64,000 nucleotides of DNA from Romanomermis culicivorax. Its lineage: Eukaryota; Nematoda; Enoplea; Mermithida; Mermithidae. This document shows positions 28,580 to 52,588 of this stretch, in pieces (position 1 is the stretch's first letter; each line of letters opens with the position of its first letter). The stretch lies in assembly GCA_963922205.1 (NCBI GenBank), contig CAWUHX010000022.1, forward strand, positions 1,116,001 to 1,180,000, read 5' to 3'. A program made the position numbers and the translations under genes. The notes below the pieces were generated by a model. That model had not been told where the DNA came from. It was given only the letters and a program-made list of their open reading frames with translations, and made no database searches.

Positions 28580-30175
28580 AATTTAGATACGTTCACTCTC
28601 TCTCTATGTATGTAAGAAAATCAACTTTTCGTGAGTTTCAGTAAACATATACCGGTAGAGAAGTGTACAAACACCGAAAAAGGAATTTTTGTTCTTTATT
28701 TGTTTTTCTGAAATTTTCGACAGTTTTTCTCGCTAGTGCGACGAGTAAGTGGGTGACGCCGCCGGTATATCCACAAAGTTCTCTACTGACGCAAAAAACT
28801 TGCTTTTGTACGTTCGAAAGTTGTCTGAACATTTTTTTTGTTGCAGAAACATAAATTTCTAGCAGCAGCAATTTAAAAAAGAGAATAAACAAACATCCGA
28901 CCAGTTTTTCGAGAATGACAAGGTCGTACAGACAAAGGTGCATATATGAATATCAAATACAAAAGGGCTGAATATTCACCGTTTAAAGTGTTTCGAAAAA
29001 CACACGTCAGTGAAATGAAGATCAAAGAAACTCAATCGATCATTGTTGGTAGATGAGATTCAATACCAAGGGACTGAAACAGAACTTTACCTCGTAAAGA
29101 CGCCCACAGATTTTACATGCCACCAGGGGAAAACTTTCATATAAATTTTTTTGATAATCGTTAGATGATAGCCCTCGAAAACAGGTTTCATACGTCGAAA
29201 CAATGATGAGTCATTAAATATTTTTTTTTACCGTAATAACATCAGCAGAGGCATTTTGATGCATGCAATAATTTTGAGTCAGAGATACATAAGATTGCGA
29301 CTTTTCAACTCATCGATTTATGTCAAAATGACTGTCTTTTATAAAACCCTTATCAAAAAAATAATAATACTGTTGTCGACATCGTCTTTAGACCAAGCCC
29401 CTGCGATGTAATTTTGTACTCGATGAAAAAGTGTGTAATAAGCAAACGAATTTGCATTCGTGTGTGACATACTGTTCAGCACGAAAATGTAAAAAAATAC
29501 GAAATATCAATTGTTTTTCCCGGTTATCATTCACAAGCATTACACGAAAAAGAGACTACATTATAGTCGTTTTGTTTCGACCCTGTGTTACATGCAAAAG
29601 CCTGCCTTATCATCAATCATCTTTCGACTTTGCAATCTTTAACTCGACAACTAAACTCGATTAATTTTGAAATGATCGATGCAGCGATCCCATGAAAATA
29701 AGTTCAATATGGAAAAAACTATTGTGCTTATTACTGTAATCAACGAAAGATTTTTTTCGTAAGTGAGCGGCAAACAAAACGGCTGAAAATTCACTCTAAT
29801 AACCTGGTTAAGTCATCAAAATTTCTCGAGTACCATTCAGGTATTGACCTTTTGTCCAAAGCGACAGTGGATAAGCATGATGTTTTTCAAGGATTTTAGC
29901 CTTTCCCATTCTCATGAATGGATTAAGCCTTTTTCTACATTAAAAATTTTTAAAAATAAAAAAATAAAAAAACAAATAAAAAAATGAAAAAAATAAAAAA
30001 ACAATAAAAAAAATTGCGTATCAAATCCAATAATTTTTTTGGTTTTCGCTGCACCTATCGTTTTAAATTAAGTGAGAAATAGGTGCTCTTATAGTCATTT
30101 TTATAAAATGCTTGTGCATAAATATGACAAGAAATAATTACCACCCTCAAAGTCATGTACAGAAACCTTTTACTG
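28580..30175. other. Upstream region of gene A and intergenic DNA
   Basis: The promoter of gene A should lie at the low end, but no clear TATA box or trans-splice acceptor stands out. A CT repeat (CTCTCTCTCTATG) lies at 28595-28610. An A-rich low-complexity tract occupies about 29938-30015. No further gene is supported. Confidence 0.4.
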
Positions 30176-31082
30176 TGTAACGACCAGATTTGTGTGAGGT
30201 ACTTTACTTGGACCAATCGGTCGATACGGCGGGGTAAATAACGGGACGGGGGCGCGGGCGAACGATTACAAATACGGGGCGATAATATACGAACAATCGA
30301 CGGTCGCTTGAACGTCGACAATAAACGCGCTTCGAATTAAAATACGGACGGGGGCCTCGGTTTAAATGCTTTCGAATAGTCGGCCGCTTGCAAATGTATA
30401 AAGACGGGGCGAGCGCGAAAAAAACACAAGAATAAGAATCAGAATCAGAATCCGAATGATCAAATCACGCTCTGCTTCTTCTTTTATATGGCGATTCTGG
30501 CCACTCCCTGGACGCTGCGGGAGGTCGAGCTTCTGTCCATCTTCTTCCGCCAATCGTCGTTTCCGGCTACGCTTTTTATGCTTACTTAGTTACGCCTCTC
30601 TAACGCTTTTCTGGTACCGTATGCTTTCTGTGCTTCACTTGCTTTCTACGGTGGGCTTGGCCACACCTCTGTGCTTCTGTGCATGCTTCCTGTATCGGTT
30701 TCTCTGTATACACATGTTTTGTGGGGCCGCCGCTACTGTTACACTTGAGACTACTGTACGGCGGGGCTTCTACGTATTTTACTGTGTGCAGGTGTTGTTT
30801 ACGATTTTTACGGGGGATTACGGTAGCTGTGGAATGTGTAGTTTAGTGTGGGTTCTAGGGGAACAGCTGCCGTTTGTGCAAATTAATTAGGGCATCTTAA
30901 TTGGGCTACCGGGGTGTGAACGGATCAAAATAAAGTACTTCACGTAATTTTGTAGGAATGTTTGGGTGTGAATCCCAGACATCCTTGAGACAATAAATGT
31001 GAAAATAAAATAATATCTAATAAATGTCTATTACATACAGTATGCTACATGTTTACAGTACTGCTTTAGCAGGTACGTTACA
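30176..31082 (-). repeat. Retroelement 1, 3' LTR (907 bp)
   Basis: On the plus strand it runs TGTAACGACC to GGTACGTTACA. It differs from the other LTR at about four sites (near 30254, 30345, 30472 and 30985). It abuts a purine-rich tract at 31083 on the coding strand. GC-rich relative to flanking host DNA. Confidence 0.95.
30480..30490 (-). promoter_or_regulatory. Candidate TATA box in LTR (3' copy)
   Basis: On the coding strand the sequence reads CATATAAAAG, about 590 bp into the LTR. It would place a start site about 30 bp downstream and leave an R-U5 of about 280 bp. The same bases occur in the 5' LTR at 38890-38900. Another TATAAAG lies on the opposite strand near 30399, so assignment is tentative. 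Confidence 0.35.
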
Positions 31083-31095
31083 TTTCCCTCCTTCC
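31083..31095 (-). other. Polypurine tract of retroelement 1
   Basis: The coding strand reads GGAAGGAGGGAAA directly against the 3' LTR, the expected position for priming plus-strand DNA synthesis. Confidence 0.8.
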
Positions 31096-31113
31096 GGAGT
31101 TGAACGTCCTCGT

Positions 31114-34100
31114 TCAAGGCTTTCGAGGTTGAGGAGGGGTGGGGGTAGATTCGTTAGCTGCTTTCCGAGGGTAGAAAGGGGTTGTTTCGTTTACATGCAC
31201 CGTAAATGTAATATTCTTATGGGGGTGTTTCAGTGTAACGTTGGGGTACATGAAATTTGTAACTGTATAGGGTCCGTTTTGGCGAGGGAGGAATTTGGGA
31301 GTCAGCCCTTGTTTACACGAATGATTTTTGTAGAGAATAAGATCACCTGCCTTGTAATGTATGTTCTGAGCATGCTTGTTATACTGACGGGTATAGTGGG
31401 CTTGGGCTTTTTGCAAACTTTTCTGCACGGTTGAGAGTGCCTCTGTAAAATGCGATTTTACACGAAGGGCGTAATCGTCTAAATCAACCATGTAGGACGT
31501 GGGGAAAAAATTTAAAGCTGCATCTGACGGCAGATTAGCTTGTCTACCGTGGAGTAATTCAAATGGGGGATATGATGTGCTATCATTTTTATGGATGTTG
31601 ATCGAAAAAACGGCATACGGGAGATAAGTATCCCAATCAGTGTGATTTGAATTGATGTACATGCGGATACGGGTGGCTAGGGTTTGGTTGCAACGCTCAA
31701 CTTCCCCATTGGCAATGGGATGGTATGGGGTGGTATGAATTTTCTGAGTGTTGCATAAACTGGTGATCCGTGAGAAAAGATCGGAGACGAAATCGGTGCC
31801 ACGATCACAATGGATGATTTTTGGGGACCCATGACGGCAAACAATTTTGGTTACGAATAGCTTGGCAATGGTGGCTGCAGTGATGTCAGGGGTCGGGAAG
31901 GCCTCTACATACTTTGTGAAATAATCGATGAAAACGACAATAAATCGGTTGCCGTCTTCTGTGAGGGGTAACGGTCCCATGCAATCAACACCAACTCGAT
32001 CAAATGGGCCAGTTGGCTGAATTGGTACCAAGTTTGCATGCACTTTGTGTCTAAGAGCTTTATGTGTCTGGCATGGGTGGCAAGTTTTGCAGTAACGTTT
32101 GATATCACGGCTCATTTGGGGCCAAAAATATTTCTGTCTGAGCAAGTGTAAAGTTTTCCTGGCTGCAAAATGACCTGTGAATTTGCTGTCATGATGTGAG
32201 GCGATGAGATGCTGGACTTGCGACTTGGGAATGTATAGTTTTGCCTGTTTGTCAACTATACGGAAGAGAATGTTTTGATGCACTGCGAATTTGATCAGAG
32301 TAAGGGGGTGTTTTTGGGCGATTTTTGCTAAAATACTTTTGATAGTTGGGTCAGTGCGTTGTAATTCGGCAAAGTTTTTCTTTTGCTCTTCTTGTTCAGT
32401 TGCTTCGGCTTCCAAAACTGAATTGATAGTTGATATTTCGGGGCGGGTTTCTAATTGCTCAATATCAAAGGATTGTTTTGCTGTCTGTGAGGGGAATCGA
32501 GAAACTGCATCTGCGTTGCGGTTAGCAGTGCCTTTCTTAGGTCGAATGTCGAGTTGAATACCGGAGAGGGCTAATCCCCAACGGGCAATGCGAGGGGACG
32601 GGTTTTCCTTTTGTAAGACTGCCTGAACTGCTGTGTGGTCAGTGTGTACAATAACATGTTGCTGGAAAAGATAAGGGCGGAAATACTTGATAAATTCGAC
32701 TACTGCAAGGGTTTCCAACTCAGTGATCGGATAGTTGCGTTCTGCGGGTTTCAATGTGCGGCTCCCAAAAGCAATGGGGCGATCCTGACCTTTATTATCT
32801 AGTTGACTGAGAATGGCGCCAATTCCGAGTTTTGAGGCGTCAGTTTGCAGAATAAACGGTTTTGTGAAATCGGGATGCTGTAGTATTGGGGCATGGATGA
32901 GTAATTCTTTGAGTTTAGTGAATGCGTTTTGCTGTTCAGGGCCCCAGGAAAATTCGGAATTCTTTTTGAGTAGCGATGTGAGTGGGCTAGAAACTTGAGA
33001 GCAATTTGGGATGAATCTGCGATAATACGAGGGTAGGCCAAGGAATGATTTAACTTCTTTTGAGCTTTTGGGCGTGGGTATGTCATAGATTGCCTGCACC
33101 TTATGGGGATCTGGTGAAATGCCTTGCTGAGAAATGACGTGGCCTAAGTATTGGACTTGGGGCTGGCAGAATTTGCATTTTTGTATGTTTAGCTTAAGGC
33201 CTGCTTGTGAGAATCGGGCAAGAATAGTGTCTAAACGTTCCAGCATTTGGGCATGGGAGTCTGCGAATACTAAAACATCGTCGAGATACACAAGGCATGT
33301 GTTCCATTGCAAACCCGAAAGAATAACGTCCATTAACCTTTGGAATGTGGCTGGGGCATTGGTGAGTCCAAAGGGGAGGTAATTGAATTGATACTGGCCG
33401 GCTGAGCAATTAAAGGCCGTTTTTTCTCTGTCTGCTTGTGCTATGGGAATGGAATAGTATGCATTGGATTGGTCCAGGGACGTGAAATATTTCATTCCAC
33501 GGAGGGTGTCTAGAATTTCGTCTATTCGGGGCAAGGGGTAGGTATCTTTTTTGGTGACTTTGTTGAGGCCTCGAAAATCAATGCATAAACGATGGCCTCC
33601 ATCTTTTTTGGGAACTAAAACTGTGTTGGTACACCATGGGGAATTGCTTTGGCTTATGACACCTGCTGCTGCGAGTTGCTCAACTTCTGCTTGTATGATT
33701 TGCTTTTCTTTTGGGGAAGTCCGATAAAGTTGTCTACGTACGGGTTGGGAGCCATTGGTGTCAATTGTATGTGAAACGAGGGTGGTTCTGCCTACGTCCA
33801 TTTTGGATTTAGCATATAATGTAGGGTACTTCGATAGGGCGCGTAGGAGTTGCGTTTTTTCTGCTTCTGTGAGGTCACTCGAGGTTAAATTAACATTTTC
33901 TTTTAACCATGTGAATGTATCAAAACGGTTGGGCTGGTTTTGCGTGGAAGGGGTTACGTTAGCGGGAGTATTTTGTTTCGGGATGTAACAGGAGACTGTG
34001 CCAATGCATGTTCCAGGGTAAAGAATTTGGGCTGTTTCTTGTGTCTTTAGGACTGATATGCGTATGCGACTGTTTTGATTCTCAGATATACAAGCTGCGA

Positions 34101-37100
34101 AATGGACTTTGGGATTCTGTTTGGGTTTTGGGGTGAATTCAAGCTGTTTGACCTGTAAGTACGATTTGGGCAAGGGGACAGTAAATTCAGTTACTGTACG
34201 GGGTGGTAATTCTAATTTCTCGTCTAGATAAGTTCCACCACGAGTTGAAAGAGGGCTATATTCTAGGCCATCACAGGGTAGTATAACATTGCCAAATTTG
34301 ACCTGTGATTTTTGATTGTTGATAGTGTATTCCCAAAATCGACTGAGAAAGTTTTTGCCTAGAAGGATGTCTGCTGTGCAATCTTTTTGGACATGGACCA
34401 TGATTGTTTCTTGGATTGTTTGGGCTGTTACTGTGACAAAAGTGGTTCCCACAAAGTGAATCCGTAGATTATTTGCTGCTTTTGCTTGGACTAGCGGGGG
34501 TTTCATGTCTAACTGTAAAAGTTGAGCGATTCTGGAATCAATGAGTGAGTAAACTGCACCAGTGTCAATCATGCCTTTTGTCATTAATTTGCCGTTAAGT
34601 GTGATTGGAATATGAGGGGTATGTTTCTCAGGTACGTTTTGGGGTGGCTTATTTGATGCAGATTGCTGAATTTGATTAATGAGTTCGATTGCAGGAGTTC
34701 GGGGGGTATCGATATCGACAAGGACGTATTTCTGCTGTGTTTGTGCCCCACGACGATTAGCTAATTCTAAGAGAGCATGGCCGAATGATGGGGGTATGGT
34801 CTCATGTAAATGTCTGTTGTTTGAAGGTATTTCGTATGCATGTTCGTTTGTGGCATGATGCTTTGGAGAGGGGAAGTATTTTCGAAGAACGAGAAACGAA
34901 TAAAAGACGCCTGCAATAACTACAGTAATAACGGCGAGATTGATAATGATTTGCAGGGGTCCTTTGAGTAAATTGTTTAATCCGTCTGTGAGACTTTGGG
35001 TGGTACCGGTAATTACATGTTCTATGCCTTGACCGGCGCCAGAGAGTGTATTTCCGAGTGCTTGGCCAGTGCCTGAGATCATGTTGTAAACTGTATCGGA
35101 GTTGAGAGACATTTGGGCGGTGTAATTGACGAGTTTTTTGACGACGTTTTCAAGTGTGTGAGTTTTATAAATGTATTGTTTCAAAAAGAGTAAGTTGGTT
35201 GAAATAGTTGCAAGTTGATCATGAAAAATGGCGGGTGTATTAAAATGGAAAAGGGAGAAATTTTGGTTCCAAATGATTTCTAAAGGTAAATTTGTGACAT
35301 GCGGGGATCCTGTTTCACTGACCCATGTATTATTCTGTTTGTAAAGGGCTACATGCATGTGATGGCAGTCAACGGTTTGCGAAAAAGGGGTCAAATCGTT
35401 GCCTCCTGGATTTGAAAACATGAGTTCGGTTCCTACGAGGATGGGTAAAAGTTTGTAGCATGTTTGGTTGATTTTATGGTTGTAGAAGACTTTAGATGCG
35501 TTTACTTGCTTGCAGGGCCAGACTGTGAGGGCTTCTCCTGTAAATTCTGCTATGATGTCGGTTCTTTGTAGGAATGCACGTGCTCCAAGGGTTGCATCAA
35601 GACGTAAAATTTGCCATACGAGATCAAGGTGACGCTGTGCCTGTCTGCATAATTCACTCCATACGTTTTTGAAATTTTGAATTTCGAATTCCTGTATTTT
35701 GTCTGCTAGATAGTTTAGTTTTGCATTGATGGGTTCAAAATCATCAAAATCGTATAGTGTAGTATGAGTTTCGTTGGTTTTTGGGGTTAAAAATGCGTTA
35801 CGATGTGGTGTGCTTTTGTCTAATTGTACAATAATGCCTTGTTCGGTTAGAATGCTGTCTTGGATTTCTGAGCAATTGGGGTTTGAAAAGAGTGTGTTTT
35901 TAACCGAAAATGCACCTTGTAGCTCTTCTATTATCATGTGTGTTTGCGTGAGTTTGATGGGATGTGTGTTTTTGTATTCGAAGGGGCATAAGTTTTCAAA
36001 TGCTGTTTCATTCCAGATAATGGATCCGTCGGCTGTGACACAATGACCTGATGTCGGTTTGCATGACCCTAGGTCACCTAATGTACCTGTCATAGATTTT
36101 CCATTCCAAGATGCTATTTGTCCTATTTCTATGATGACGTTAGTGACCGAGGTACAATGGTCTGTACAACACCATGTGTATTCTACGCTTAGGGAGTTAT
36201 TTGTTGACCAAAATCCTGGTTGGGTTTCGTATAATTTTTGACCGTTGTGTTCTTTGTCTATAACGATTGCCTTACAAACATGTGGGGTTAGATTTTGCAT
36301 TTCGGTTTGGTCGAGGACAATACCTTTTGATCCAAAAAATCCTGTATTAGTACAAATTTTGCGTTTGCGAACACTGCATTTGTATGCGTCTGTAATGTGG
36401 GGCTTAGTGGAGGGGATATAGATTTTTCCGAATGTTTGTACGGGTTTGTCTACTGTGGAAGGGGGCATGCATGATACAAGTTTTGGTATGCTGACTGAAT
36501 GACCGCTCAATGAAGTTCCACACATCTGAAATTGGGCACTACACGATGTGGGGATTATTATACAAAGAAAAATACAAAACATTGGCCAATAGAATGTTTT
36601 AGTGGAGGCGGCGGGGCACTGTATGTTTTCGTTGTGGCCGGTTTGGTGTTGGGGCTTTTGGTGTTGTCGTTTTGCGGTTTTGCGCTGGGGGGGTGGCCGG
36701 TTTGCAATCTGAACATTCTGTAAAACTTTAGAAGTTGAGTTATGGGATGGGGTTTGGACTTGCTTACTTATGGGGGTCGGTAGAAGTGTTTGGCGGGGGT
36801 GGAATTGGTAGGGTTCGGGGGTCAGGCCATGGAGAAGGGATAACAAGTTGCGGCCTGTTTTCGACGGGGTTTCGGGAGCGGTGGGCGGCGTTGTGTCTTG
36901 CTTTCGGGGGATCTTGTAGCCTACGGGGATGGTGGGCGGCGATTTTTCGATTTTTGCGGCTTCAGGCGTGGGGGGTGGTGACATGGTGCACCAATCGGGT
37001 ACGTCCAGATCAAGGACATATTCGTCACTGCGGCGGTGGGTGTTGGGCATGATAGTTCCTAAAGTAGTCTGAGGGCCGTTAGTTATGGCGGGTAATTTTG

Positions 37101-38343
37101 AGTAAAATGCGGGGTCATCAATGTCCATGAGGGGTTGGGGTTGCCTGTACTCAATGCAATTTTGAATATTACGACTCTGCTGATTTGGGCAATACCTGCT
37201 TGTATGACCTCTCTGCTTGCATATAAAACATTGAAAATTGGAGTAGGGTTTTGAAGGGCAGTTATCTGATCTATGTCCTGTTTGGGAGCAGTGGATGCAT
37301 GGGCTTTTACAATCACGTGTACTGTGATTATTACGGAAACAGATTTCACATGATTTTCTGGTGCCTACTGATTTACAATTACGAGCTACGTGTCCGATTT
37401 GTCCACACTGGAAGCATGTGGGTTGCCTAGGGGTGGTATTGTTCCTGTAAGCATTATTCCTGCTGAAAGTATTGTTACTGAAATTGTTGTAGCTACTTTG
37501 TTGTGGGGGTTGAGGTTTTTGTTTGATCTGCAACTGTAAATCTTTTACTTGTTGTTCTAACTGATGCAAAAGATCCTGTTGGTCTGTGTTTTTGGTGAGG
37601 GAAAAGATGGGTTCGGGTTTTGGGGGTATGAAGGGAAGGACATTAGATTTTAACTCGTTTCTAAGGATTTGCTGTTCAATGTAAGCTGCTTCGTCTGACA
37701 TTTCTTTTAGAGTTGCGAACCTTCTATACTTAATTGCTTCCCTGATTTCGTTTTGCATGCCTTCTACAAAGAGGGGTTTTATGATCATTTCTCGTGCGTC
37801 TGTATTAAAGTTAGGGTAGGCGAGGGTTGCGAGATGTTCTAGATCAAATAAGAATTCCGTTACTGTTTCTGATCGCTTTTGTTTTCTTTCGCGTAAGAAT
37901 TGTTGATGTAGCTCATTATCTCTATTGTTTGGGAAAAATGCCTGTAATGCGACTTTATACTGCTCGTATGTGTGGGGAGGGTTTTCGGAATTTGCTAAAC
38001 TTTTGAACTTTGCTAACGCGGCTCCTCCTAAATGAATTTCTAAACATGCCAACTTTAACTGTACGTCTGTATCTTTCATGCCTTGGAGTGCCATGAATTG
38101 TTCTAATCTTTTGTTCCATTCACCAAAATGTTGGGTCACGCGGCCCGTGAATACTGTAGGTTTCGCGTAGAAATTGTTTGCCATGTTATTACGAATGTTT
38201 GCTGTTCTTAGATCGTCTATTAGGGTAGGGTTTACTGTATTCTGATTCAATTGTGTGCGTAGGGTACGAAAATGTTCTGAAAACAAATCGTTTATCTGTT
38301 CTCTAACGATTTCTCCTAAATGATCTTGCGTTTGGTGGGTCAT
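31114..38343 (-). CDS. Retroelement 1 polyprotein: Gag-Env-PR-RT-RH-IN, 2409 aa, one ORF
   Basis: One open frame with no internal stop. Residues 1-300 are a capsid-like Gag (retrotransposon-gag pattern around FLFDLEHLATLAYPNF). Four zinc knuckles lie at about 310-385 (CFQCGQIGHVARNC, CEICFRNNHSTRDC, CIHCSQTGHRSDNC, CFICKQRGHTSRYC). A Pro-rich linker reaches about 580. A hydrophobic signal is at 585-602, a Cys-rich ectodomain at 603-1128 and a membrane helix at 1130-1153. Retropepsin has MIDTGAVYSLID at about 1258 and ILLGKNFL. RT has YLDD at about 1686. RNase H has LQTDAS, ELETLAV and HTDH. Integrase has an HHCC zinc site (2050-2091), catalytic D in VDCMGP, D in HCDRGTDF, E in NGEVERCNQ, and GPY near 2357. 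The start is the first ATG after a ~240-nt leader. All catalytic residues seem present, so it may be active. Confidence 0.93.
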   Translation of the reverse strand: MTHQTQDHLGEIVREQINDLFSEHFRTLRTQLNQNTVNPTLIDDLRTANIRNNMANNFYAKPTVFTGRVTQHFGEWNKRLEQFMALQGMKDTDVQLKLACLEIHLGGAALAKFKSLANSENPPHTYEQYKVALQAFFPNNRDNELHQQFLRERKQKRSETVTEFLFDLEHLATLAYPNFNTDAREMIIKPLFVEGMQNEIREAIKYRRFATLKEMSDEAAYIEQQILRNELKSNVLPFIPPKPEPIFSLTKNTDQQDLLHQLEQQVKDLQLQIKQKPQPPQQSSYNNFSNNTFSRNNAYRNNTTPRQPTCFQCGQIGHVARNCKSVGTRKSCEICFRNNHSTRDCKSPCIHCSQTGHRSDNCPSKPYSNFQCFICKQRGHTSRYCPNQQSRNIQNCIEYRQPQPLMDIDDPAFYSKLPAITNGPQTTLGTIMPNTHRRSDEYVLDLDVPDWCTMSPPPTPEAAKIEKSPPTIPVGYKIPRKQDTTPPTAPETPSKTGRNLLSLLHGLTPEPYQFHPRQTLLPTPISKQVQTPSHNSTSKVLQNVQIANRPPPQRKTAKRQHQKPQHQTGHNENIQCPAASTKTFYWPMFCIFLCIIIPTSCSAQFQMCGTSLSGHSVSIPKLVSCMPPSTVDKPVQTFGKIYIPSTKPHITDAYKCSVRKRKICTNTGFFGSKGIVLDQTEMQNLTPHVCKAIVIDKEHNGQKLYETQPGFWSTNNSLSVEYTWCCTDHCTSVTNVIIEIGQIASWNGKSMTGTLGDLGSCKPTSGHCVTADGSIIWNETAFENLCPFEYKNTHPIKLTQTHMIIEELQGAFSVKNTLFSNPNCSEIQDSILTEQGIIVQLDKSTPHRNAFLTPKTNETHTTLYDFDDFEPINAKLNYLADKIQEFEIQNFKNVWSELCRQAQRHLDLVWQILRLDATLGARAFLQRTDIIAEFTGEALTVWPCKQVNASKVFYNHKINQTCYKLLPILVGTELMFSNPGGNDLTPFSQTVDCHHMHVALYKQNNTWVSETGSPHVTNLPLEIIWNQNFSLFHFNTPAIFHDQLATISTNLLFLKQYIYKTHTLENVVKKLVNYTAQMSLNSDTVYNMISGTGQALGNTLSGAGQGIEHVITGTTQSLTDGLNNLLKGPLQIIINLAVITVVIAGVFYSFLVLRKYFPSPKHHATNEHAYEIPSNNRHLHETIPPSFGHALLELANRRGAQTQQKYVLVDIDTPRTPAIELINQIQQSASNKPPQNVPEKHTPHIPITLNGKLMTKGMIDTGAVYSLIDSRIAQLLQLDMKPPLVQAKAANNLRIHFVGTTFVTVTAQTIQETIMVHVQKDCTADILLGKNFLSRFWEYTINNQKSQVKFGNVILPCDGLEYSPLSTRGGTYLDEKLELPPRTVTEFTVPLPKSYLQVKQLEFTPKPKQNPKVHFAACISENQNSRIRISVLKTQETAQILYPGTCIGTVSCYIPKQNTPANVTPSTQNQPNRFDTFTWLKENVNLTSSDLTEAEKTQLLRALSKYPTLYAKSKMDVGRTTLVSHTIDTNGSQPVRRQLYRTSPKEKQIIQAEVEQLAAAGVISQSNSPWCTNTVLVPKKDGGHRLCIDFRGLNKVTKKDTYPLPRIDEILDTLRGMKYFTSLDQSNAYYSIPIAQADREKTAFNCSAGQYQFNYLPFGLTNAPATFQRLMDVILSGLQWNTCLVYLDDVLVFADSHAQMLERLDTILARFSQAGLKLNIQKCKFCQPQVQYLGHVISQQGISPDPHKVQAIYDIPTPKSSKEVKSFLGLPSYYRRFIPNCSQVSSPLTSLLKKNSEFSWGPEQQNAFTKLKELLIHAPILQHPDFTKPFILQTDASKLGIGAILSQLDNKGQDRPIAFGSRTLKPAERNYPITELETLAVVEFIKYFRPYLFQQHVIVHTDHTAVQAVLQKENPSPRIARWGLALSGIQLDIRPKKGTANRNADAVSRFPSQTAKQSFDIEQLETRPEISTINSVLEAEATEQEEQKKNFAELQRTDPTIKSILAKIAQKHPLTLIKFAVHQNILFRIVDKQAKLYIPKSQVQHLIASHHDSKFTGHFAARKTLHLLRQKYFWPQMSRDIKRYCKTCHPCQTHKALRHKVHANLVPIQPTGPFDRVGVDCMGPLPLTEDGNRFIVVFIDYFTKYVEAFPTPDITAATIAKLFVTKIVCRHGSPKIIHCDRGTDFVSDLFSRITSLCNTQKIHTTPYHPIANGEVERCNQTLATRIRMYINSNHTDWDTYLPYAVFSINIHKNDSTSYPPFELLHGRQANLPSDAALNFFPTSYMVDLDDYALRVKSHFTEALSTVQKSLQKAQAHYTRQYNKHAQNIHYKAGDLILYKNHSCKQGLTPKFLPRQNGPYTVTNFMYPNVTLKHPHKNITFTVHVNETTPFYPRKAANESTPTPPQPRKP
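34624..36591 (-). other. Envelope-like glycoprotein region inside polyprotein 1 (residues 585-1240)
   Basis: Begins with MFCIFLCIIIPTSCSA, a convincing signal peptide. It has many cysteines, several N-x-S/T sites, and one membrane helix (INLAVITVVIAGVFYSFLVL) followed by a basic tail. Blocks shared with retroelement 2 include [43 protein letters not shown] and TCYK-LP. It should form a surface glycoprotein allowing extracellular spread. The stalk before the helix is rich in G, A, S and T. Fusion-protein class is not decided from sequence; a class III or other divergent viral fold is possible. Confidence 0.8.
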
Positions 38344-38560
38344 TCTTGGTTTACGATGGGATTTCTGCTTAAATGCTTCAATTTTTGCTTCACGCTGTAT
38401 TCGTTTAAATGTATCACTTAATGTTTCGTTAGAGGGGATTTCCAGTTTGCTTTCTACGAATACTGTCTTACTGTAGGAAATGATTACTACTGTATTACTA
38501 ATGCTTCTAAACGCCCGGATAAGAGTACACCTAACTGGGGGCAGGGAGTTCCACTGGTTA

Positions 38561-38580
38561 ACGTAATGGTACGGTCACCA
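38561..38580 (-). other. Candidate primer-binding site of retroelement 1
   Basis: Five bases after the 5' LTR, the coding strand reads TGGTGACCGTACC, starting with the TGG expected to pair with a tRNA CCA end. The matching tRNA was not identified. Confidence 0.6.
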
Positions 38581-38585
38581 AAATA

Positions 38586-39492
38586 TGTAACGACCAGATT
38601 TGTGTGAGGTACTTTACTTGGACCAATCGGTCGATACGGCGGGGTAAATAACGGGACGGGGGCACGGGCGAACGATTACAAATACGGGGCGATAATATAC
38701 GAACAATCGACGGTCGCTTGAACGTCGACAATAAACGCGCTTCGAATTAAAATATGGACGGGGGCCTCGGTTTAAATGCTTTCGAATAGTCGGCCGCTTG
38801 CAAATGTATAAAGACGGGGCGAGCGCGAAAAAAACACAAGAATAAGAATCAGAATCAGAATCCGAATGATCAAATCACGCTTTGCTTCTTCTTTTATATG
38901 GCGATTCTGGCCACTCCCTGGACGCTGCGGGAGGTCGAGCTTCTGTCCATCTTCTTCCGCCAATCGTCGTTTCCGGCTACGCTTTTTATGCTTACTTAGT
39001 TACGCCTCTCTAACGCTTTTCTGGTACCGTATGCTTTCTGTGCTTCACTTGCTTTCTACGGTGGGCTTGGCCACACCTCTGTGCTTCTGTGCATGCTTCC
39101 TGTATCGGTTTCTCTGTATACACATGTTTTGTGGGGCCGCCGCTACTGTTACACTTGAGACTACTGTACGGCGGGGCTTCTACGTATTTTACTGTGTGCA
39201 GGTGTTGTTTACGATTTTTACGGGGGATTACGGTAGCTGTGGAATGTGTAGTTTAGTGTGGGTTCTAGGGGAACAGCTGCCGTTTGTGCAAATTAATTAG
39301 GGCATCTTAATTGGGCTACCGGGGTGTGAACGGATCAAAATAAAGTACTTCACGTAATTTTGTAGGAATGTTTGGGTGTGAATCCCAGACATCCGTGAGA
39401 CAATAAATGTGAAAATAAAATAATATCTAATAAATGTCTATTACATACAGTATGCTACATGTTTACAGTACTGCTTTAGCAGGTACGTTACA
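38586..39492 (-). repeat. Retroelement 1, 5' LTR (907 bp)
   Basis: Same length and boundaries as 30176-31082, with about four substitutions. It contains the likely promoter of the element, including CATATAAAAG at 38890-38900. A 144-codon frame on the opposite strand is preserved in both LTRs but has no recognisable product. Confidence 0.95.
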
Positions 39493-39523
39493 ACTGCATA
39501 ATTTTTAACTTAACAAATAATAC

Positions 39524-44569: not shown

Positions 44570-47500
44570 TTAGCGTCTAAGCTGATTGACATGCACAGTA
44601 TCTTCTTGATCAGTCTCAAGTCGAATGGTGACATTAGGATAAGCCACATTCGTGACAAAGTAGGGGCCATCATAAATGGGCAATAATTTGGGCGTTAGAC
44701 CACGTTTTCCAGTAGTGCCCAGTTTGAGCACTCGATCCCCAACCTTGTATGAGACATCTCGTGCCATGCGGTCGTAGGACCTAGCATAAGCCGCCTGTGA
44801 TCTCTCAATTCTGCTCTGGATCAAGGTCAAGGCATTGGTAAAATGCCGTTTGACCTCCATATCATAAGTAGAAACATCTATGATATGGGCCTGAGGATTG
44901 AATGAGAGTGCTGCGTCAACAGGTAGCATGGGAGTACGACCATACATGAGCTCAAAGGGTGAATACCCTGTGGACTCATTCATGCTAATGTTGACAGCGA
45001 ACACAGAGTACGGCAGGTGTTCATCCCAATCAGTATGACCTTGGTGGACATACATACGTAACTGTGTGGCTAGCGTTTGGTTAGCTCTTTCCACTTCTCC
45101 GTTTGTCATGGGATGATAAGCGGTGGAGTGGATTTTCTTAGTTGAACAAATGGCAGTGATTTCAGTCATCAGTTTGGACGTGAAATCAGTACCATGATCA
45201 GACTGAAGAATCTGCGGTGCCCCATGTCTGCAGACAATTTGAGTAACAAAAAGCCAAGCTATAGTTTGCGCAGTGATGTCCGGAGTAGCGAAAGCTTCAA
45301 CCCATTTGGTAAAGTAGTCTATGAAAACTACAATAAATCGGTTGCCGTTTTCACTAGTGGTCATTGGTCCCATACAGTCGACACCGACTCGATGAAATGG
45401 TCCCGTAATGGAAATTGGTTTCAGAGTTGCACGGGTCTTTTGTCTCGCAGGTTTATTCCGTTGGCAAAGATCACACCGCTGACAAAAGGACTTGACGTCC
45501 GCACTGAGGGAAGGCCAGTGGTACCTGCGGGCTATAAGCCTCGCGGTACGTTTCGCACCAAAGTGTCCAGCAAGAATGTCGTCATGATGAGCCTCAATAA
45601 TGGTAGTAACCATTGAAGGAGGGACAACAATCTTGTTGGACTCGCCTGTCCACTTCTGAAGGATGTTATCCAACAGGTGGTAGCCATTAACATCATTCTG
45701 ATCACCGTAGGGTTTTAGTGACCTGAGAATGGAGGCTAATTCCGGATCCTCAAATTGAGTTGCGAGAAGGTCATGGTGCTGCGCATCCTGTGATATCTCT
45801 GCATAAGACTCAGACCTGGCCAGGTGCTGCGCACCATTGGTGGTCCTTTGGGATGAGTTCGCCAGGCGCTGCGCACCATCGGAGATCATCATAACTTCTC
45901 CCTCGTGTCTGTATAGGGGAATATCGTCAATACTCTCCCCGGCAAGGGAATTAGGATCAGGAAGGCGTGATAATGCGTCAGCATTACCATTAGACCGACC
46001 TTTTCGCGGCCGAATAGTCAGTTTGAATTCAGCTAACGCGAGGCCCCACCGAGCTATCCGGGACGAAGGGTTTGGTTTTTCCAACACAGCCTTAACAGCA
46101 GTGTGATCAGTCTGAACGACCACCTCATGTTGAAAGAGGTAAGGCCGAAAGTGCTTGACGAAATGGACAACAGCGAGAGTCTCCAACTCCGTAATAGTGG
46201 AGTTTTTCTCAGCTGCTGTTAACCCTCTACTGGTGTACGCAACAGGATGGTCGTATCCATTTTCGTCCAACTGGCTTAGAACTGCTCCTATCCCCGAAAT
46301 ACTTGCATCAGTTTGAAGGATAAAGGATTTCGTAAAGTCCGCATGGGGCAGGACAGGAGGGTTCAACAACAGCTTTCGGAGTTCGTCGAACGCCGTCTGC
46401 TGAGGTTTTGACCACTGGAAGGTAACTTCCTTCCGTAAGAGCTTGGTCAGCGGCTCGCTGAGCTGAGCGCAACCAGGGATGAAACGCCTATAATAAGACA
46501 CAAGACCAAGAAAAGACTTGATGTCTTTAGCGTTTTGTGGAATGGGTAGATCCTGGACAGCGGCCAATTTGACTTTGTCTGGTTCGAGACCTTTCTGTGA
46601 GATGCGGTACCCGAGATATTCTACCTCAGAGTGCGAAAACTTGCACTTGCTCAGTCTGAGCTTCATTCCACCCTGATGGAGATGTGTAAACACATCCGTC
46701 AGGCGCTCAAGCATCTGGATGTGAGAGTTTCCAAACACCAAGATGTCGTCGAGATAGGTCAGTGCAGTGCGCCACTGCAATCCTGTAAGAAGCAGATCCA
46801 TGAGGCGTTGAAACGTCCCAGGGGCATTGCAGAGACCAAAAGGCAGATAGTTGAACTCGTAAAGTCCAATAGGTGTATTAAACGCTGTTTTTTCTTTGTC
46901 TGCCTCAGCAATAGGTATGGACCAGTAGGCGTTAGCCTGGTCAAGGGTAGTGAAGTATTTCACACCCTTGAGTGTGTCCAGGATATCATCAATCCGTGGG
47001 AGAGGATAGACATCCTTCTTCGTGACCTCGTTGAGACCACGAAAATCAATACACATCCGGTGTGACCCATTTTTCTTGCGAACCAAGACGGTATTAGTAG
47101 CCCAGGGAGAAGTGCTAGGCCGGATAATACCTTTTTCTTGGAGCACTTTGACCTCTTGTATGATGAGATCCTTTTCCTTGGGCGCGGTGCGGTAAGGGAA
47201 ACGGCGGACTGGGCGAGCATCACCTGTGCTGATCTCATGGTGCACGAGGTCAGTGGAACCTGTGTCCTTTTCATCAACAGCGTAGAGGTCAGTAAATGCG
47301 ACCAGTAGATTGAGCAATGCTGTTTTATCCTGTGAGGAGATATCCGAAGATATTACAGCATTGGCTTCAACCCACTTACAGTCAAGAATGGTATCAGACT
47401 TGACCGCCGATCCCTGTGAGGAATCAGTATGCATCTGCACATGACCGATGGTCGTGTGTGGGTAGAGAACCACTGCGTAGGTACTTGGGTTAACTACCTG

Positions 47501-50500
47501 TAGGGGTATGCGACCATTGGTCACAGTACTCACAGTACCAGCAAAGTATACATGACGTTGCTGACCCAAAAGAGGCTTAGGGAAGAAAGCTACTTCGGGC
47601 ACAGTTGCATATATTGAAGGTACGGGTGCAGTGAATTGTGTTAGCGAGCGAGGCTCAAGGACAATCAACTCCTGCAAGGGTAGTGCCCCACGAGCAGAAG
47701 GTGGATTGTGGATGAGGCCTTCACACGGAACTTGAAGTTCCTTGAACTGGAGAAAGGATTTCTCCCAGCTCAGGCTGACGCAATTGAAACGTCGGAGGAA
47801 GTTCGTCCCCAAGACTAGTTCAGCTGAACAATTCTCTTGAACCTGGACTTGAATCCGTTCAGAGACATCAGCCACTGTCACCGTGACATAGGCAGAGCCT
47901 AGCAGTAGAATCGGGGACCCATTGGCTGCTATGGGGCCAGCCCTAGTCTCTGTTAGTACCAAGTCGGGTAACTGAACCGCCAACTTGTGATCCAGGAGTG
48001 AGAAAACTGCTCCTGTATCAATTAGAGCTTTGGCCTCTACCCAATTGTTCAGTAGAACCTTGATATGAGGGGTCCTCATCTCAGTGGGGTAGAAAGCTGA
48101 TACTACATGACCTGGGTCAGGTACAGAGTCATCAAAGCTCGACTCTGGCGCATTGGTTCGCTTCGGTATGGCTAAGCCAGTGCATCTGAGTAAACCTACC
48201 AGAGCATAACCAACTGATGTTTCCGGATTGGCCTTAGGAGTTGGATGGACCTGAACAGTGAGTACATGATCTGATCTCTCTCCTGAGCTCTGAGTAGCTC
48301 CTAGTGATTCAACCTCACCATCGGAGAGTGGTGGCACCTCTAGTACAGGGGATGCAGGTGCATCAGAGTCACTAGGCTTGTGAAAACGGCCTTTCTCTAG
48401 TGTAACTGGAGAATTTCCAGGCGGGGGTCGAGGACAGTTTGACCCTGACCTGGCCATGGAATGACCACTAGCCCGTCTAGAAGAGGTCCTACTTCCTCTG
48501 GTTGACCCACGGGATGAGGCAATGGAGGAAGCTCGCAAGGGTGGCCGAGAAAGGGACGAAGTCCTTGATCTTGATCGAGACCCGGACCTGTGGGAGGCCC
48601 TTGACAGTGAATGTGTGTTCTCCCACCAGGGTTCGATCTGATCAATCTCAGCTGCTGTCAACAGAAGTGACAGCTCTACCGCATTCAATCGACAGATATG
48701 TTGTTGGTAGTCAAATGTAATATTCTGGAATTGTTCTAAAAAGTCCAATCCAAGAATCAGATCGACCGGTGCCCAGAAAGGAGACGTAGTCTTACACACA
48801 TGGAGATGTATATCCACTCCTGTGTGTGGCTGACGGGTTCCCGGCAACATTATCTCATACGGTCCTGAAAGGAGAGTATGGACAGCTTTACCATTGATAC
48901 TCATCAATGGATTAAAGTCGTGATGTTGCTGGAAGGCCATCGCGGCCTTCGGACTTTCTTTGATCAGCGCTTTGTGAAGGTTCTGACTAATGGTAGTCCG
49001 TGGACAACCAGTATCAAGGAAAGCTGGAGTTTCCTTGTGGTCAACGAGTACAACAAAACACAGGGTGATCCTGTCTAACTGGGTTGGCACATCGTTCTGT
49101 ACGTAATGAAAACCTACCCAACGCTGAACTTTCCGGAGGAGGTTCAACAGAGAGTATTGGCTAACAAACCGAACCTGTCTTTTGCGCAGGCGGTAACTGA
49201 GGTAATAGGAGATCCTGACGTAGATTAGAAATCCTGTACCGGCCAGTACTGCCAGGGCAATAAGTGTGTTAAAGATTAGCTGCACTGATCCGCTCAAAAG
49301 AGACTGTAAGCCCTGCATGAGGTTGTGCTGCTGACCAGTAATCACATGGTTTGCTGCCAGACCAACACCTTCCAGTGAGGCTCTGATGTCAGTCCCTACC
49401 CCTGCAACCGCCTGATACAGGGTATCTGGTTGTAGGGATAAACCAGACGTATAGTTTACCAACCGGTTCAAGACTGCTTCAATTTGCTCAGTCTTGTAAA
49501 CGTACTGTTTAAAGAAAGCAAAACTAGAAGGGGTCATTGCCAACTGATCATGAAAGAGCGCAGGAGCGTCAAAGTGAGTGACGTTGAAGTGCTGTTTCCA
49601 GAACAGCTCCAGCGGAATATGGCTCACATGGACCGTCCCAGATTCAGTAAACCAGCCAGAGCGATTTCGGAAAATCCCTGTAAAGTGGTGGTCACAGGGC
49701 ACCTTTGGACTGAATTTAGTGAGATCTGGGCCACCGGGGGTGGCAAAATAAATGGCACCGCCAACCTGTACGGGTAGATACTTGTAACAGGTGTCTCCCA
49801 CTCGGTATGAATGATAGACATAAGTGGCGTTGACCTTTTGACACGGCCATATCGTCAGTGCTTCACCCCTAAATTCCGCCGTCAGGTCATTCCTCTGAAG
49901 GAATGCCCGGGCTCCTAGTGTAGGGTCAAAACGAAGCAACTGCCAAGTCAGATCAAGGTAGCGTTGAACGTGAGAACACAACTCTAGCCACATGAATCGA
50001 AAATTGTTAATTTCTGACTCTTTGATCTGCTGAGCCAGGTAATTCAGTTTGGCATTGACGGGGTCAGGGACGGAGTCCTTTGCCAATCCGAATAACCTCT
50101 GGGTCAGATTAAATCTTCCGTGGATGCGTAGAAGAAGACCCTGATCCGTTCGCACTGTGTTCAACCGGAGGTCAGGACACAGTCGAAATACGCGAGAGTT
50201 TCCCGGGATCTTCAGGGCAACTTGCAAATCATCGATGATGATGTGGTTCCCTGATACAGACGCAGTGTAATTACCTTGTGGCCGATAATGGCACTGTGCT
50301 GTAAAGTTTGTGGCAGGCCAAACAATTACCCCGTCTAGAGTAGTGCATTGACCTGCAGTGGGACTGCATCCACCTACATCTCCTAAGGTACTTAGAGCTG
50401 TAGTGCCATCCCATGAAGCGACCTGTCCCTCCTCGATGAAAAGGTTAGTCACTGTCTTGCAGACGTCATTGCAGCACCATGAGTACATCACCTCCAGTGT

Positions 50501-52588
50501 TTGGTTAGTGCTATAAAAGCCAGGACGTATTTCCACAAGCTTTTGTAAACCAAACACTTTCGTGTGATGTGCTAGAGTACACGCCGCAGGCGGGAGGTGC
50601 TGAGTAGTAATGACGTCTGCAGTAATGCCCCTAGATCCGAAAAAACCAGTGTTTGTACATACCTTACGATTCCGCAAGGTACATTTCCATGCTTTAGTCG
50701 TGATTGGATCAGAAATAGGTACATATACTGTAACGTTCATGCGTCGTGGACTCCACGAAGATTTTGGTGGTTTGCATTCAACTTTTTGAGGTAGCTCAAG
50801 TGGATGACCGCTTCTTGAAAGACCACAAAATTGGTATTGAGTAGCATGTGTTGCAGAGCTCAGTCCTAAGAACAGTAGTGTCACGAAGGCCCAATTTATT
50901 ACAAACAAAATATTTACAAACGGTGTCTGCAAATTTACACCAAAATTTACAGTTTTCACCCGTCGGGCGGCTTCATTCTTCGACGTCGTCGTGGTCGGAC
51001 GACGCGGGCTCTTCTCCGGGGAAGTCGATGACCAAGCCTCCTCCGGGGTGGACTTCTCGAAGAACGCCAATCTTCGGGGACCGGGGGACGGTAGCCATCG
51101 GAAATGGCGACGCCTCGGTGACATTGACAGCGTTGTGAATGGCGGGCAAGGGTTCTCCAAAGGCGTTGGCGACCGGTTGCTGTGGCGCAATCGCCACCAG
51201 AGTTTGGGCTCCCGTCGTCGTTGTCGTCGGTGACGTTGCAACAACTGCTGTGGGCCGCACGTTGCGACTGGCCTTTTCCACAGCGCGGCGGACGGCGTCC
51301 ACTGCCGGTGATGACGGTTCACCGTCCAACAGGATCTTGTCCACCGGGGTGGCGCAAATAGTTCCGTCGGCGATAAACTCGAGCGCCCGTCGAGCGACGT
51401 CGGGTCCCAAAATCCGCAACACCGCCGGTGCCGATAGCATGACGTCGGCGGCCGTAAGCGCCTCAACCTCGAACGGCTCGTTGAGTAGCGCCCAGGGGAG
51501 GTGCGGATACTTTTTGGCCAAATTGGTTGACCAAGCAGCCCACATCGCTTCGGTGACGGATGAGGAATCTGTAAGCAAGAGATCATTAAAGCCGGTGACT
51601 TGTAAGGATATCTAATTTTTGAACTTGAAACTTCAGAAAAAGAAGGCAGTTTACCTATCAGATTCATTGATTCCAGTTGACCGACGACCTCCAACGCGGA
51701 GTCCGTGGGAATTCCGGGCGGCGGTCCCTGGTTGATAACACGTGCCGGTGGCGCCGTTGTACCTTCCGTCGGTCGATACGACGCGATTATGCTGACGTCG
51801 CCAGTCGTTTTCGGTGTCGCTGACGGGTTTACGTTGACCGGCGTCACATATTTCGGTGGTGGCGGCGGAAAAGTTGACAATGGGGTCGCCGAAACCACTG
51901 CTGTAGCTGAAAAACCAATACTGATTACGCAGACAGGATAACACAGTTGTGAGCGATCCGCCAGGTGTTCAGCCAAAACTTCATCATCCAGATCAAATAA
52001 ATCTGGGTGAAGAAGACTGTCCGTAACCCCTACAGCATTATTTTGCCGATATTGGTTCCCTGTCCCGTGAGGAGTTGGATTAGCATACCTCCGAAAATTT
52101 CCACTTGCCCCCTGAGGAGAGTAACCAGAATTACCAAAATTAGTCTCACCAGGCAGTGTCGAATTTCGATTGGGGCAAGCCGTTGCCCGGTGCACTCGTA
52201 GTTTTCGACAATGCGGGCAGGGTCTGTCGCATCGGTCAGTCGGGTGCGCCCTCGTTCGACAAAAATAGCAACGGCTGGCGCCGGTGGCGGAGGCGGTGCT
52301 AGGGCTGGCGCTATCGGGATTTTGCGCCCGGCAAGTAGCGTGGTTGTGGGTGCAGCGTCCATGGTAGGAGCACATCTGTAGATGTGCCCCTGACGGGCGA
52401 TCGCCGGCGGCTTGGACACGCGTCGACGGCGTCGATGACGGCGTCAAATTTCTCGAAGGCGGCGCCGATTGCTGAGCCGTAAGTCGCGCAATGTGAGCCG
52501 TGAGCCGGGCCATCTCCGATTGCAAACGTCGAACCTCATCGGACGGCGTGGCCGACGGACGTTGAGCGGTGCTCCTTTGATTCCACAT
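44570..52588 (-). CDS. Retroelement 2 polyprotein: Gag-Env-PR-PR-RT-RH-IN, 2672-codon ORF
   Basis: A single open frame. Residues 73-140 hold three Gag zinc sites ([43 protein letters not shown]) after a coiled coil; no typical capsid domain is seen. Residues about 312-538 are Arg/Pro/Ser-rich and are probably not the natural protein, because a predicted intron moves Gag into another frame. Env occupies about 555-1130. A first retropepsin-like unit lies at about 1178-1300 ([22 protein letters not shown]). An Arg-Ser linker is at about 1330-1380. A second retropepsin lies at about 1518-1602 ([21 protein letters not shown]). RT has YLDD at about 1945. RNase H has LQTDAS, ELETLAV and QTDH. Integrase has its HHCC site, [23 protein letters not shown] and DGPYFV near 2640. 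Catalytic residues are intact despite the missing LTR pair. Confidence 0.85.
47759..49057 (-). other. Two retropepsin-like domains in tandem (polyprotein 2)
   Basis: The first unit (49057-48689) has FLDTGC and, ~85 residues on, LILGLDFL. The second (48061-47759) has LIDTGA and LVLGTNFL. Both pairs match the D-T/S-G and h-L-G signatures of retropepsins. They are separated by about 200 residues, including an SR-dipeptide-rich stretch. Retroelement 1 has only the second type. Retropepsins act as dimers, so the pair could form an internal heterodimer, or the first may be a diverged duplicate. Confidence 0.7.
49199..50926 (-). other. Envelope-like glycoprotein region inside polyprotein 2 (residues about 555-1130)
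   Basis: Starts with a hydrophobic signal ([20 protein letters not shown]), followed by a Cys-rich ectodomain with glycosylation sites and a membrane helix (about residues 1102-1124) with a basic tail. It aligns along its length with the Env-like region of retroelement 1, including [21 protein letters not shown] and [10 protein letters not shown]. There is no Met at the start in this frame, so expression needs fusion to Gag, frameshifting or another splice. Confidence 0.78.
50973..52588 (-). CDS. Predicted spliced Gag of retroelement 2 (509 aa, two exons)
   Basis: Exon 52588-51655 ends ATAG before GTAAAC, and exon 51568-50973 follows TTGCTTACAG. Joining gives a 1530-nt frame ending TGA at 50973-50975. 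The second exon's frame reads as an Ala/Val/Glu-rich globular protein (for example [31 protein letters not shown]). The frame of the long ORF over the same bases is Arg-rich and unstructured. This suggests that splicing gives the natural Gag C-terminus. To reach Env-Pol from this mRNA a +1 shift near 50973 would be needed. The alternative is that both unspliced and spliced RNAs are translated. Confidence 0.55.
51569..51654 (-). other. Predicted 86-bp intron in gag of retroelement 2
   Basis: Donor ATAG/GTAAAC and acceptor TCTCTTGCTTACAG/ATTCC. Its length is not a multiple of three and it has no in-frame stop, so retention and removal both leave open frames that diverge for about 200 codons. 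Confidence 0.55.

What the first reader, a model, noticed from the sequence alone, without database searches (positions are those of the whole stretch)
31114..38343. Envelope glycoprotein encoded between Gag and Pol in one uninterrupted 2409-codon ORF
Seen: zinc knuckles, then a signal peptide, Cys-rich ectodomain and membrane helix, then DTGA protease, YLDD RT, RNase H and integrase, with no stop. The ORF ends about 30 bp from the 3' LTR, so there is no downstream env. Known: in retroviruses, errantiviruses and enveloped nematode BEL elements env follows pol. Inference: one signal peptide plus one C-terminal helix would leave Gag and Pol cytosolic and only Env luminal. Signal peptidase and retropepsin could then separate the parts without a spliced env mRNA. 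I know of no described element with this gene order.
Basis: partly seen in the sequence, partly recalled or inferred. Interest (0 to 1): 0.92.

Follow-up and report, generated by a model that had tools for sequence, protein, structure and literature searches.

The report
Retroelement with envelope inside Gag-Pol
This genome carries many copies of a retrovirus-like element whose viral envelope protein is encoded between its shell and enzyme proteins in one unbroken reading frame, so all three are likely made as a single chain threaded through a membrane, and comparison of copies shows selection preserving the envelope.

Summary
A 9.3 kb Ty3/Gypsy-type element (907-bp LTRs with 4 mismatches, ACTG on both flanks) on the minus strand has one 2409-codon frame: Gag, signal-peptide-like helix, envelope ectodomain, membrane helix, protease, RT, RNase H, integrase. 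The ectodomain matches Pfam Monjiviricetes_fusion (E 6.6e-19) and its model best matches herpesvirus gB, so it is very likely a class III fusion glycoprotein. A 44%-identical Env sits in the same place in a second element of the window. In the window's genome 82 Env matches were scored (98-100% identity), 54 of them in frames of at least 2409 aa. Protease follows Env in 8 of 8 further loci cut out. Env pN/pS is 0.08 in copies chosen by the protease region. The Met beside the signal peptide is Leu in 15 of 30 copies, 8 of those in long frames. This favours translation inside the polyprotein; a spliced mRNA borrowing the gag AUG is not excluded. This is a compact, high-copy variant.

The parts
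38586..39492 (-). 5' LTR, 907 bp, flanked by ACTG (39493-39496)
   Evidence: differs from the other LTR at 4 of 907 sites
38562..38579 (-). likely primer-binding site (TGGTGACCGTACC...), 6 nt after the LTR
   Evidence: read by eye; tRNA not identified; inferred
31114..38343 (-). single Gag-Env-Pol ORF, 2409 codons
37174..38343 (-). Gag: capsid-like region and four CCHC knuckles (residues 1-390)
   Evidence: Retrotrans_gag 2e-5, zf-CCHC 9.6e-10; motifs
36541..36597 (-). signal-peptide-like helix, residues 583-601
   Evidence: hydrophobicity scan; 30 copies compared
34960..36537 (-). Env ectodomain, residues 603-1128, gB-like class III fusion fold (predicted)
   Evidence: PF24664 6.6e-19; folds; selection
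34894..34950 (-). Env membrane helix, residues 1132-1150
34339..34611 (-). retropepsin protease (DTGA at residue 1260)
   Evidence: gag-asp_proteas 1.2e-9; motif
33166..33615 (-). reverse transcriptase core (YLDD at residue 1686)
   Evidence: RVT_1 1.7e-35; motif
32563..32946 (-). RNase H
   Evidence: RT_RNaseH_2 8.3e-39
31717..32232 (-). integrase: H2C2 zinc domain and rve core
   Evidence: 1.9e-21 and 9.8e-9
31083..31095 (-). likely polypurine tract (GGAAGGAGGGAAA) beside the 3' LTR
   Evidence: read by eye
30176..31082 (-). 3' LTR, 907 bp, flanked by ACTG (30172-30175)
44570..52588 (-). second element: 2672-codon ORF with Env before protease, RT, RNase H, integrase; capsid and LTRs not found
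49289..50839 (-). Env of the second element, 44% identical to the first
   Evidence: PF24664 1.8e-16; gB fold

Best explanation
The element encodes Gag, a gB-type envelope glycoprotein and Pol in one reading frame and is likely translated as a single polyprotein that would cross the ER membrane twice. Inferred steps: Gag is made in the cytosol; the internal signal peptide (about residue 585) would take the chain to the ER; the Env ectodomain would be luminal; the helix at 1132-1150 would stop transfer and leave protease, RT and integrase cytosolic. Signal peptidase would then free the Env N-terminus, and the element's own retropepsin, which follows the Env tail on the cytosolic side, would cut Pol and Gag away. 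Shown by sequence: order, single frame, selection on Env, and loss of the local start codon in half of the copies examined. Predicted only: the fold. Not shown: expression, topology, cleavage, particles.
For: One frame with the domains in order. Env: PF24664 over its cut-off; Foldseek and VIA-align put herpesvirus gB first; viral models: mononegavirus-type glycoproteins first; the second element's own model agrees. Protease follows Env on the same strand in 8 of 8 PF24664 loci cut out of the own genome, in one frame throughout in 4 of 8 (frames worked out from its coordinates), and in 7 of 11 database proteins with Env, one of the 7 (P0008) by a weak Pfam match only; the other 4 end before that point. 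Three other own-genome families: no Env match at E 1e-4 in the 2.7 kb held after integrase. Selection: Env pN/pS 0.082 over 153 pairs, 18 of 21 copies used, chosen by the protease region. Residue 588 is Met in 15 and Leu in 15 of 30 copies; 8 of the 15 Leu copies lie in frames of at least 2409 aa; the nearest upstream Met is 132-146 residues away in all 15. In the second element, P0004, P0005 and P0006 the nearest Met is 69, 313, 58 and 45 residues before the helix. Sequons 63/4942 in Env against 84/11102 in Gag plus Pol, p 0.002; cysteines 148/4942 against 187/11102, p 2e-7, nine elements pooled. Net positive charge after the membrane helix in 7 of 7 proteins tested. No NPGP (2A) motif in the sequences scanned.
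Against: No RNA or protein data. Splicing could supply the gag AUG. Some relatives do have a Met close to the signal peptide: P0003, P0025 at 6 residues, and L008. P0004 ends 76 residues beyond its Env part, so pol is not in that frame. 28 of 82 copies have shorter frames, and 4 of the 8 PF24664 loci show a shift of frame within Env or between Env and protease. The sequon excess is a pooled one: in P0006 Env has slightly fewer per residue than Pol. Models are of low to middling confidence (mean pLDDT 62 and 64, pTM 0.35 and 0.34; TM-scores about 0.4 or less). Equal numbers of Gag, Env and Pol would be unusual for a particle (recalled).
Confidence: 0.55

Rival explanations
1. Env is made from a spliced subgenomic mRNA: a short 5' exon with the gag AUG or leader is joined in frame just before the signal peptide, while the full-length RNA serves mainly for Gag and Pol.
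For: Spliced env mRNAs are the rule in retroviruses and errantiviruses (recalled). Cer1 has no stop between gag and pol and still uses conventional splice sites for cerv mRNA (PMC10309623, passage). The missing local Met does not exclude a borrowed AUG.
Against: No splice site was tested here. Unspliced RNA would still make the membrane-threaded chain, so splicing would add to it rather than replace it.
Confidence: 0.27
2. Env starts at its own AUG or by internal initiation on the full-length RNA.
For: The window copy has Met at residue 588; P0003 and L008 have a Met close before the helix.
Against: Residue 588 is Leu in 15 of 30 copies, 8 of these in frames of at least 2409 aa; nearest Met 45-313 residues away in four other elements.
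Confidence: 0.1
3. Env is a decayed or passive passenger, carried along by Gag-Pol.
For: 28 of 82 copies lie in shorter frames; a close relative, P0025, has no Env ectodomain.
Against: pN/pS 0.082 in Env, chosen by the protease region, close to 0.080 for the helix-to-protease part; Env without stops in 82 of 82 scored copies, though these were ranked by Env.
Confidence: 0.03

Closest known systems
Burro giant Gypsy elements of planarians (PMC6431247, section 7 read in full)
   Same: Gypsy-type; Gag with CCHC knuckles first; env in frame between gag and pol, just before protease; env region with hits to mononegavirus fusion glycoproteins.
   Different: Burro exceeds 30 kb with ORFs of 4873-5140 aa and cargo such as MATH, BIR, BCL2, ankyrin repeats and dUTPase; here 9.3 kb and 2409 aa with no such domain in the Pfam scan. 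Burro sequences were not at hand, so descent was not compared.
Anakin, BEL-Pao elements with a chuvirus glycoprotein (PMC7642597, passages)
   Same: LTR retroelement that took up a glycoprotein of the Jingchuvirales/Mononegavirales kind.
   Different: BEL-Pao instead of Gypsy-type relatives; position of the glycoprotein relative to pol was not found in the passages seen.
Errantiviruses and enveloped BEL elements Roo, Tas, Cer7 (PMC7642597, passage; otherwise recalled)
   Same: LTR elements with an envelope gene; Cer7 env is said to come from a herpesvirus.
   Different: Their envelope lies downstream of the polyprotein; here it is inside it.
Herpesvirus gB and other class III fusion proteins
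   Same: Predicted fold.
   Different: 10-15% identity in the alignments; carried by a retroelement polyprotein.

Membership tests
Metaviridae (Ty3/Gypsy) | LTRs with short target duplication, Gag with CCHC, PR-RT-RNase H-IN order | tested here: met
Metaviridae (Ty3/Gypsy) | RT placed within Ty3/Gypsy on a tree with named reference elements | tested here: inconclusive
   trees hold database relatives, hardly any named; one hit is named Ty3-gypsy
Errantivirus-like enveloped element | env as separate ORF after pol | tested here: not met
   31 nt between stop and 3' LTR; Env is inside the ORF
Burro | env in frame between gag and protease | tested here: met
Burro | giant size and cargo domains in the polyprotein | tested here: not met
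   9317 bp, 2409 aa; no such Pfam match
Burro | sequence kinship of RT and env | not tested
   no Burro sequence at hand
Anakin | BEL-Pao type pol | tested here: inconclusive
   no BEL-Pao reference was compared; pol relatives listed include one named Ty3-gypsy
Class III viral fusion glycoprotein | gB-like fold and profile | tested here: met
Class III viral fusion glycoprotein | trimer with fusion loops that fuses membranes | not testable with these tools
   needs the expressed protein

The most novel reading that the evidence does not exclude
A whole class of enveloped retroelements, in at least two reverse-transcriptase lineages and at high copy number in one genome, makes capsid, fusion glycoprotein and replication enzymes as one chain that threads the ER membrane. 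Each ribosome delivers core, envelope and polymerase together, with no env mRNA at all: another way, beside splicing, for a retroelement to be enveloped.
Probability: 0.45. Interest if true: 0.86.

Novelty: new variant of a known kind. Interest (0 to 1): 0.66.

Why it matters
Retroviruses and the better known enveloped retrotransposons place env after pol. An abundant family with near-identical copies and selection on Env makes the alternative testable: whether an envelope can be expressed inside Gag-Pol and still be displayed. It also turns a short remark about planarian giants into a pattern seen in several compact families, with one glycoprotein type kept in the same place across divergent elements.

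Tried and rejected
Chance ORF or insertion in one copy: rejected by the second element, the 82 scored copies and the pN/pS value. Env from its own AUG: weakened. 2A separation: no NPGP in the sequences scanned. Env after pol in relatives: no match in 3 of 3 families looked at. Sequence hits to solved structures: 0 at E up to 10. Viral contigs (2 scans) and genome contigs (1 scan): no confirmed relative. The first Env pN/pS (0.033, 30 copies ranked by Env score) is biased low by that choice and is replaced. P0025 as an element that kept the signal peptide and helix after losing the ectodomain: only position and hydrophobicity speak for it; BLAST finds no similarity of these stretches (E above 1). 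Rows left out of the 40-row RT tree: P0007 (90 residues of RT) and P0008 (long branch) among Env carriers with RT, most of the other database rows for size, and P0003, P0004, P0012, P0013, P0014, which gave no RT match. P0029 counts there as an Env carrier although only its membrane helix before protease is present. Papers: ten searches; the one earlier report of env between gag and pol that was seen is Burro; bioRxiv is not held apart from preprints in PubMed Central. Seen: section 7 of PMC6431247 in full and passages of the rest; passages only of PMC7642597, PMC10084718, PMC12440569, PMC10309623, PMC8556966, PMC6238403, PMC11071296; all other papers as search listings. LTR copy number in the genome: not completed.

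Full report
What is there. The minus-strand ORF 31114-38343 (2409 aa) lies in a 9317-bp LTR element, 30176-39492. The two 907-bp LTRs differ at 4 sites and ACTG stands on both sides. The stop codon is 31 nt from the 3' LTR. Pfam on four separate pieces gives Gag and zinc knuckles, PF24664 Monjiviricetes_fusion, retropepsin, RT, RNase H and integrase in that order. Only stretches at 583-605 and 1132-1150, either side of the Env block, pass the hydrophobicity threshold.

It is not a one-off. A second element in the window (ORF 44570-52588) has a 44% identical Env before protease, RT, RNase H and integrase. No capsid match and no LTR pair were found for it. In the database, 11 proteins carry a related Env. 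In 7 of the 11 a protease follows, in P0008 by a weak Pfam match only; the other 4 end before that point. P0005 and P0006 (2293 and 2294 aa) show the whole order Gag, Env, PR, RT, RNase H, IN. The only relative named from an animal genome is P0014 from the mermithid nematode Romanomermis culicivorax, 53% over 282 residues.

Own genome. In 359 Mb and 595 contigs the Env search scored 82 of 4122 candidates; all 82, the window copy among them, are 98-100% identical over 526 residues without stops, and 54 of 82 lie in open frames of at least 2409 aa. The PF24664 search scored 68 of 2320 candidates, all over cut-off, with 0 of 14 control genomes positive. In the 8 loci cut out from that search a protease lies directly after Env on the same strand in 8 of 8; Env and protease share one frame throughout in 4 of 8 (L004, L005, L007, L008), while the others show shifts (frames worked out from its coordinates). 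Two of the 8 (L002, L007) are copies of element 1; the rest are 38-57% identical in Env. For three divergent families (RT 75, 61 and 53% identical to element 1) the next 6 kb hold RT, RNase H and integrase and no Env match at E 1e-4 in the 2.7 kb after integrase. In two of them a purine-rich run and an LTR-like TGT follow the stop closely (by eye). The third has a further 441-aa open frame without a Pfam match.

Selection. Of 21 copies (the window copy and ranks 2-21 of the protease-region search), 18 were usable; two had a stop and one was out of register. Env pN/pS is 0.082 over 153 pairs, with 9.8 nonsynonymous and 33.0 synonymous differences per pair. In the copies ranked by Env, one search gives 0.080 for the helix-to-protease part and 0.208 for the Gag part. 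Env is thus kept about as well as that part of Pol.

How it is expressed. If Env had its own start, a Met before the signal peptide should be kept. Residue 588 is Met in 15 and Leu in 15 of 30 copies, and 8 of the 15 Leu copies lie in frames of at least 2409 aa. In the second element, P0004, P0005 and P0006 the nearest Met is 69, 313, 58 and 45 residues before the helix. Against this, P0003, P0025 and L008 do have a Met close by. A gag AUG borrowed by splicing remains possible and was not tested. Sequons and cysteines are enriched in Env over nine pooled elements, though not in every one (P0006 sequons), and the residues after the membrane helix are net positive in 7 of 7 proteins, as expected for a luminal ectodomain with cytosolic Gag and Pol. 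Topology, cleavage and particles are inferred.

Evolution. In a 40-row RT-RNase H tree, elements 1 and 2, P0002, P0029, P0031 and three rows without an Env match (P0025, P0032, P0038; the last two do not reach that region) form one clade (100/100); P0005 and P0006 sit apart. Well-supported branches force at least three changes of the label; gain, loss and exchange cannot be told apart. The Env tree keeps the same two groups. P0025, a Gag-Pol without the ectodomain, has its two most hydrophobic 19-mers between the knuckles and the protease, but these do not resemble the Env signal peptide or helix.

Known work. Size and cargo differ; descent could not be compared. PMC7642597 (passages) describes BEL-Pao elements with a chuvirus glycoprotein, and PMC10084718 (passages) found no clear capture of Jingchuvirales glycoproteins by Gypsy elements.

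Verdict. A real Gag-Env-Pol arrangement with a gB-type glycoprotein, at high copy number and under selection; a compact variant of a rarely noted kind. The membrane-threaded polyprotein is the likeliest mode of expression and is untested.

Noticed in passing
window 48599-49081 and 47729-48151 (-): The second element seems to carry two retropepsin-like domains in tandem: a weak one (LDTGC, Pfam E 0.004, below cut-off) and a normal one (IDTGA, 2e-7).
   Followed up: partly
window 50912-52588 (-): The N-terminal part of the second ORF has a zinc knuckle but no capsid match, and a long Arg/Pro-rich stretch that looks out of frame although it is open.
   Followed up: partly
P0025 residues 509-588: A close relative (RT 67%) with Gag-Pol in one frame has no Env ectodomain but two hydrophobic stretches 42 residues apart at the place of Env.
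   Followed up: partly
L041 3884-5206 (+): A 441-aa open frame downstream of integrase in another Env-bearing family, without a Pfam match.
   Followed up: partly
L001, L003, L006: Three related loci change frame inside Env, in L001 and L003 near its C-terminal part; decay and recoding were not told apart.
   Followed up: no
G000:C180:404-17640: Three Env matches at a regular spacing of 8365 bases, each with one TGA: tandem copies of a broken element, or an assembly effect.
   Followed up: no
window 16001-18000: GC falls to 27%, against 34-41% in the other 2-kb blocks of the first 30 kb.
   Followed up: no
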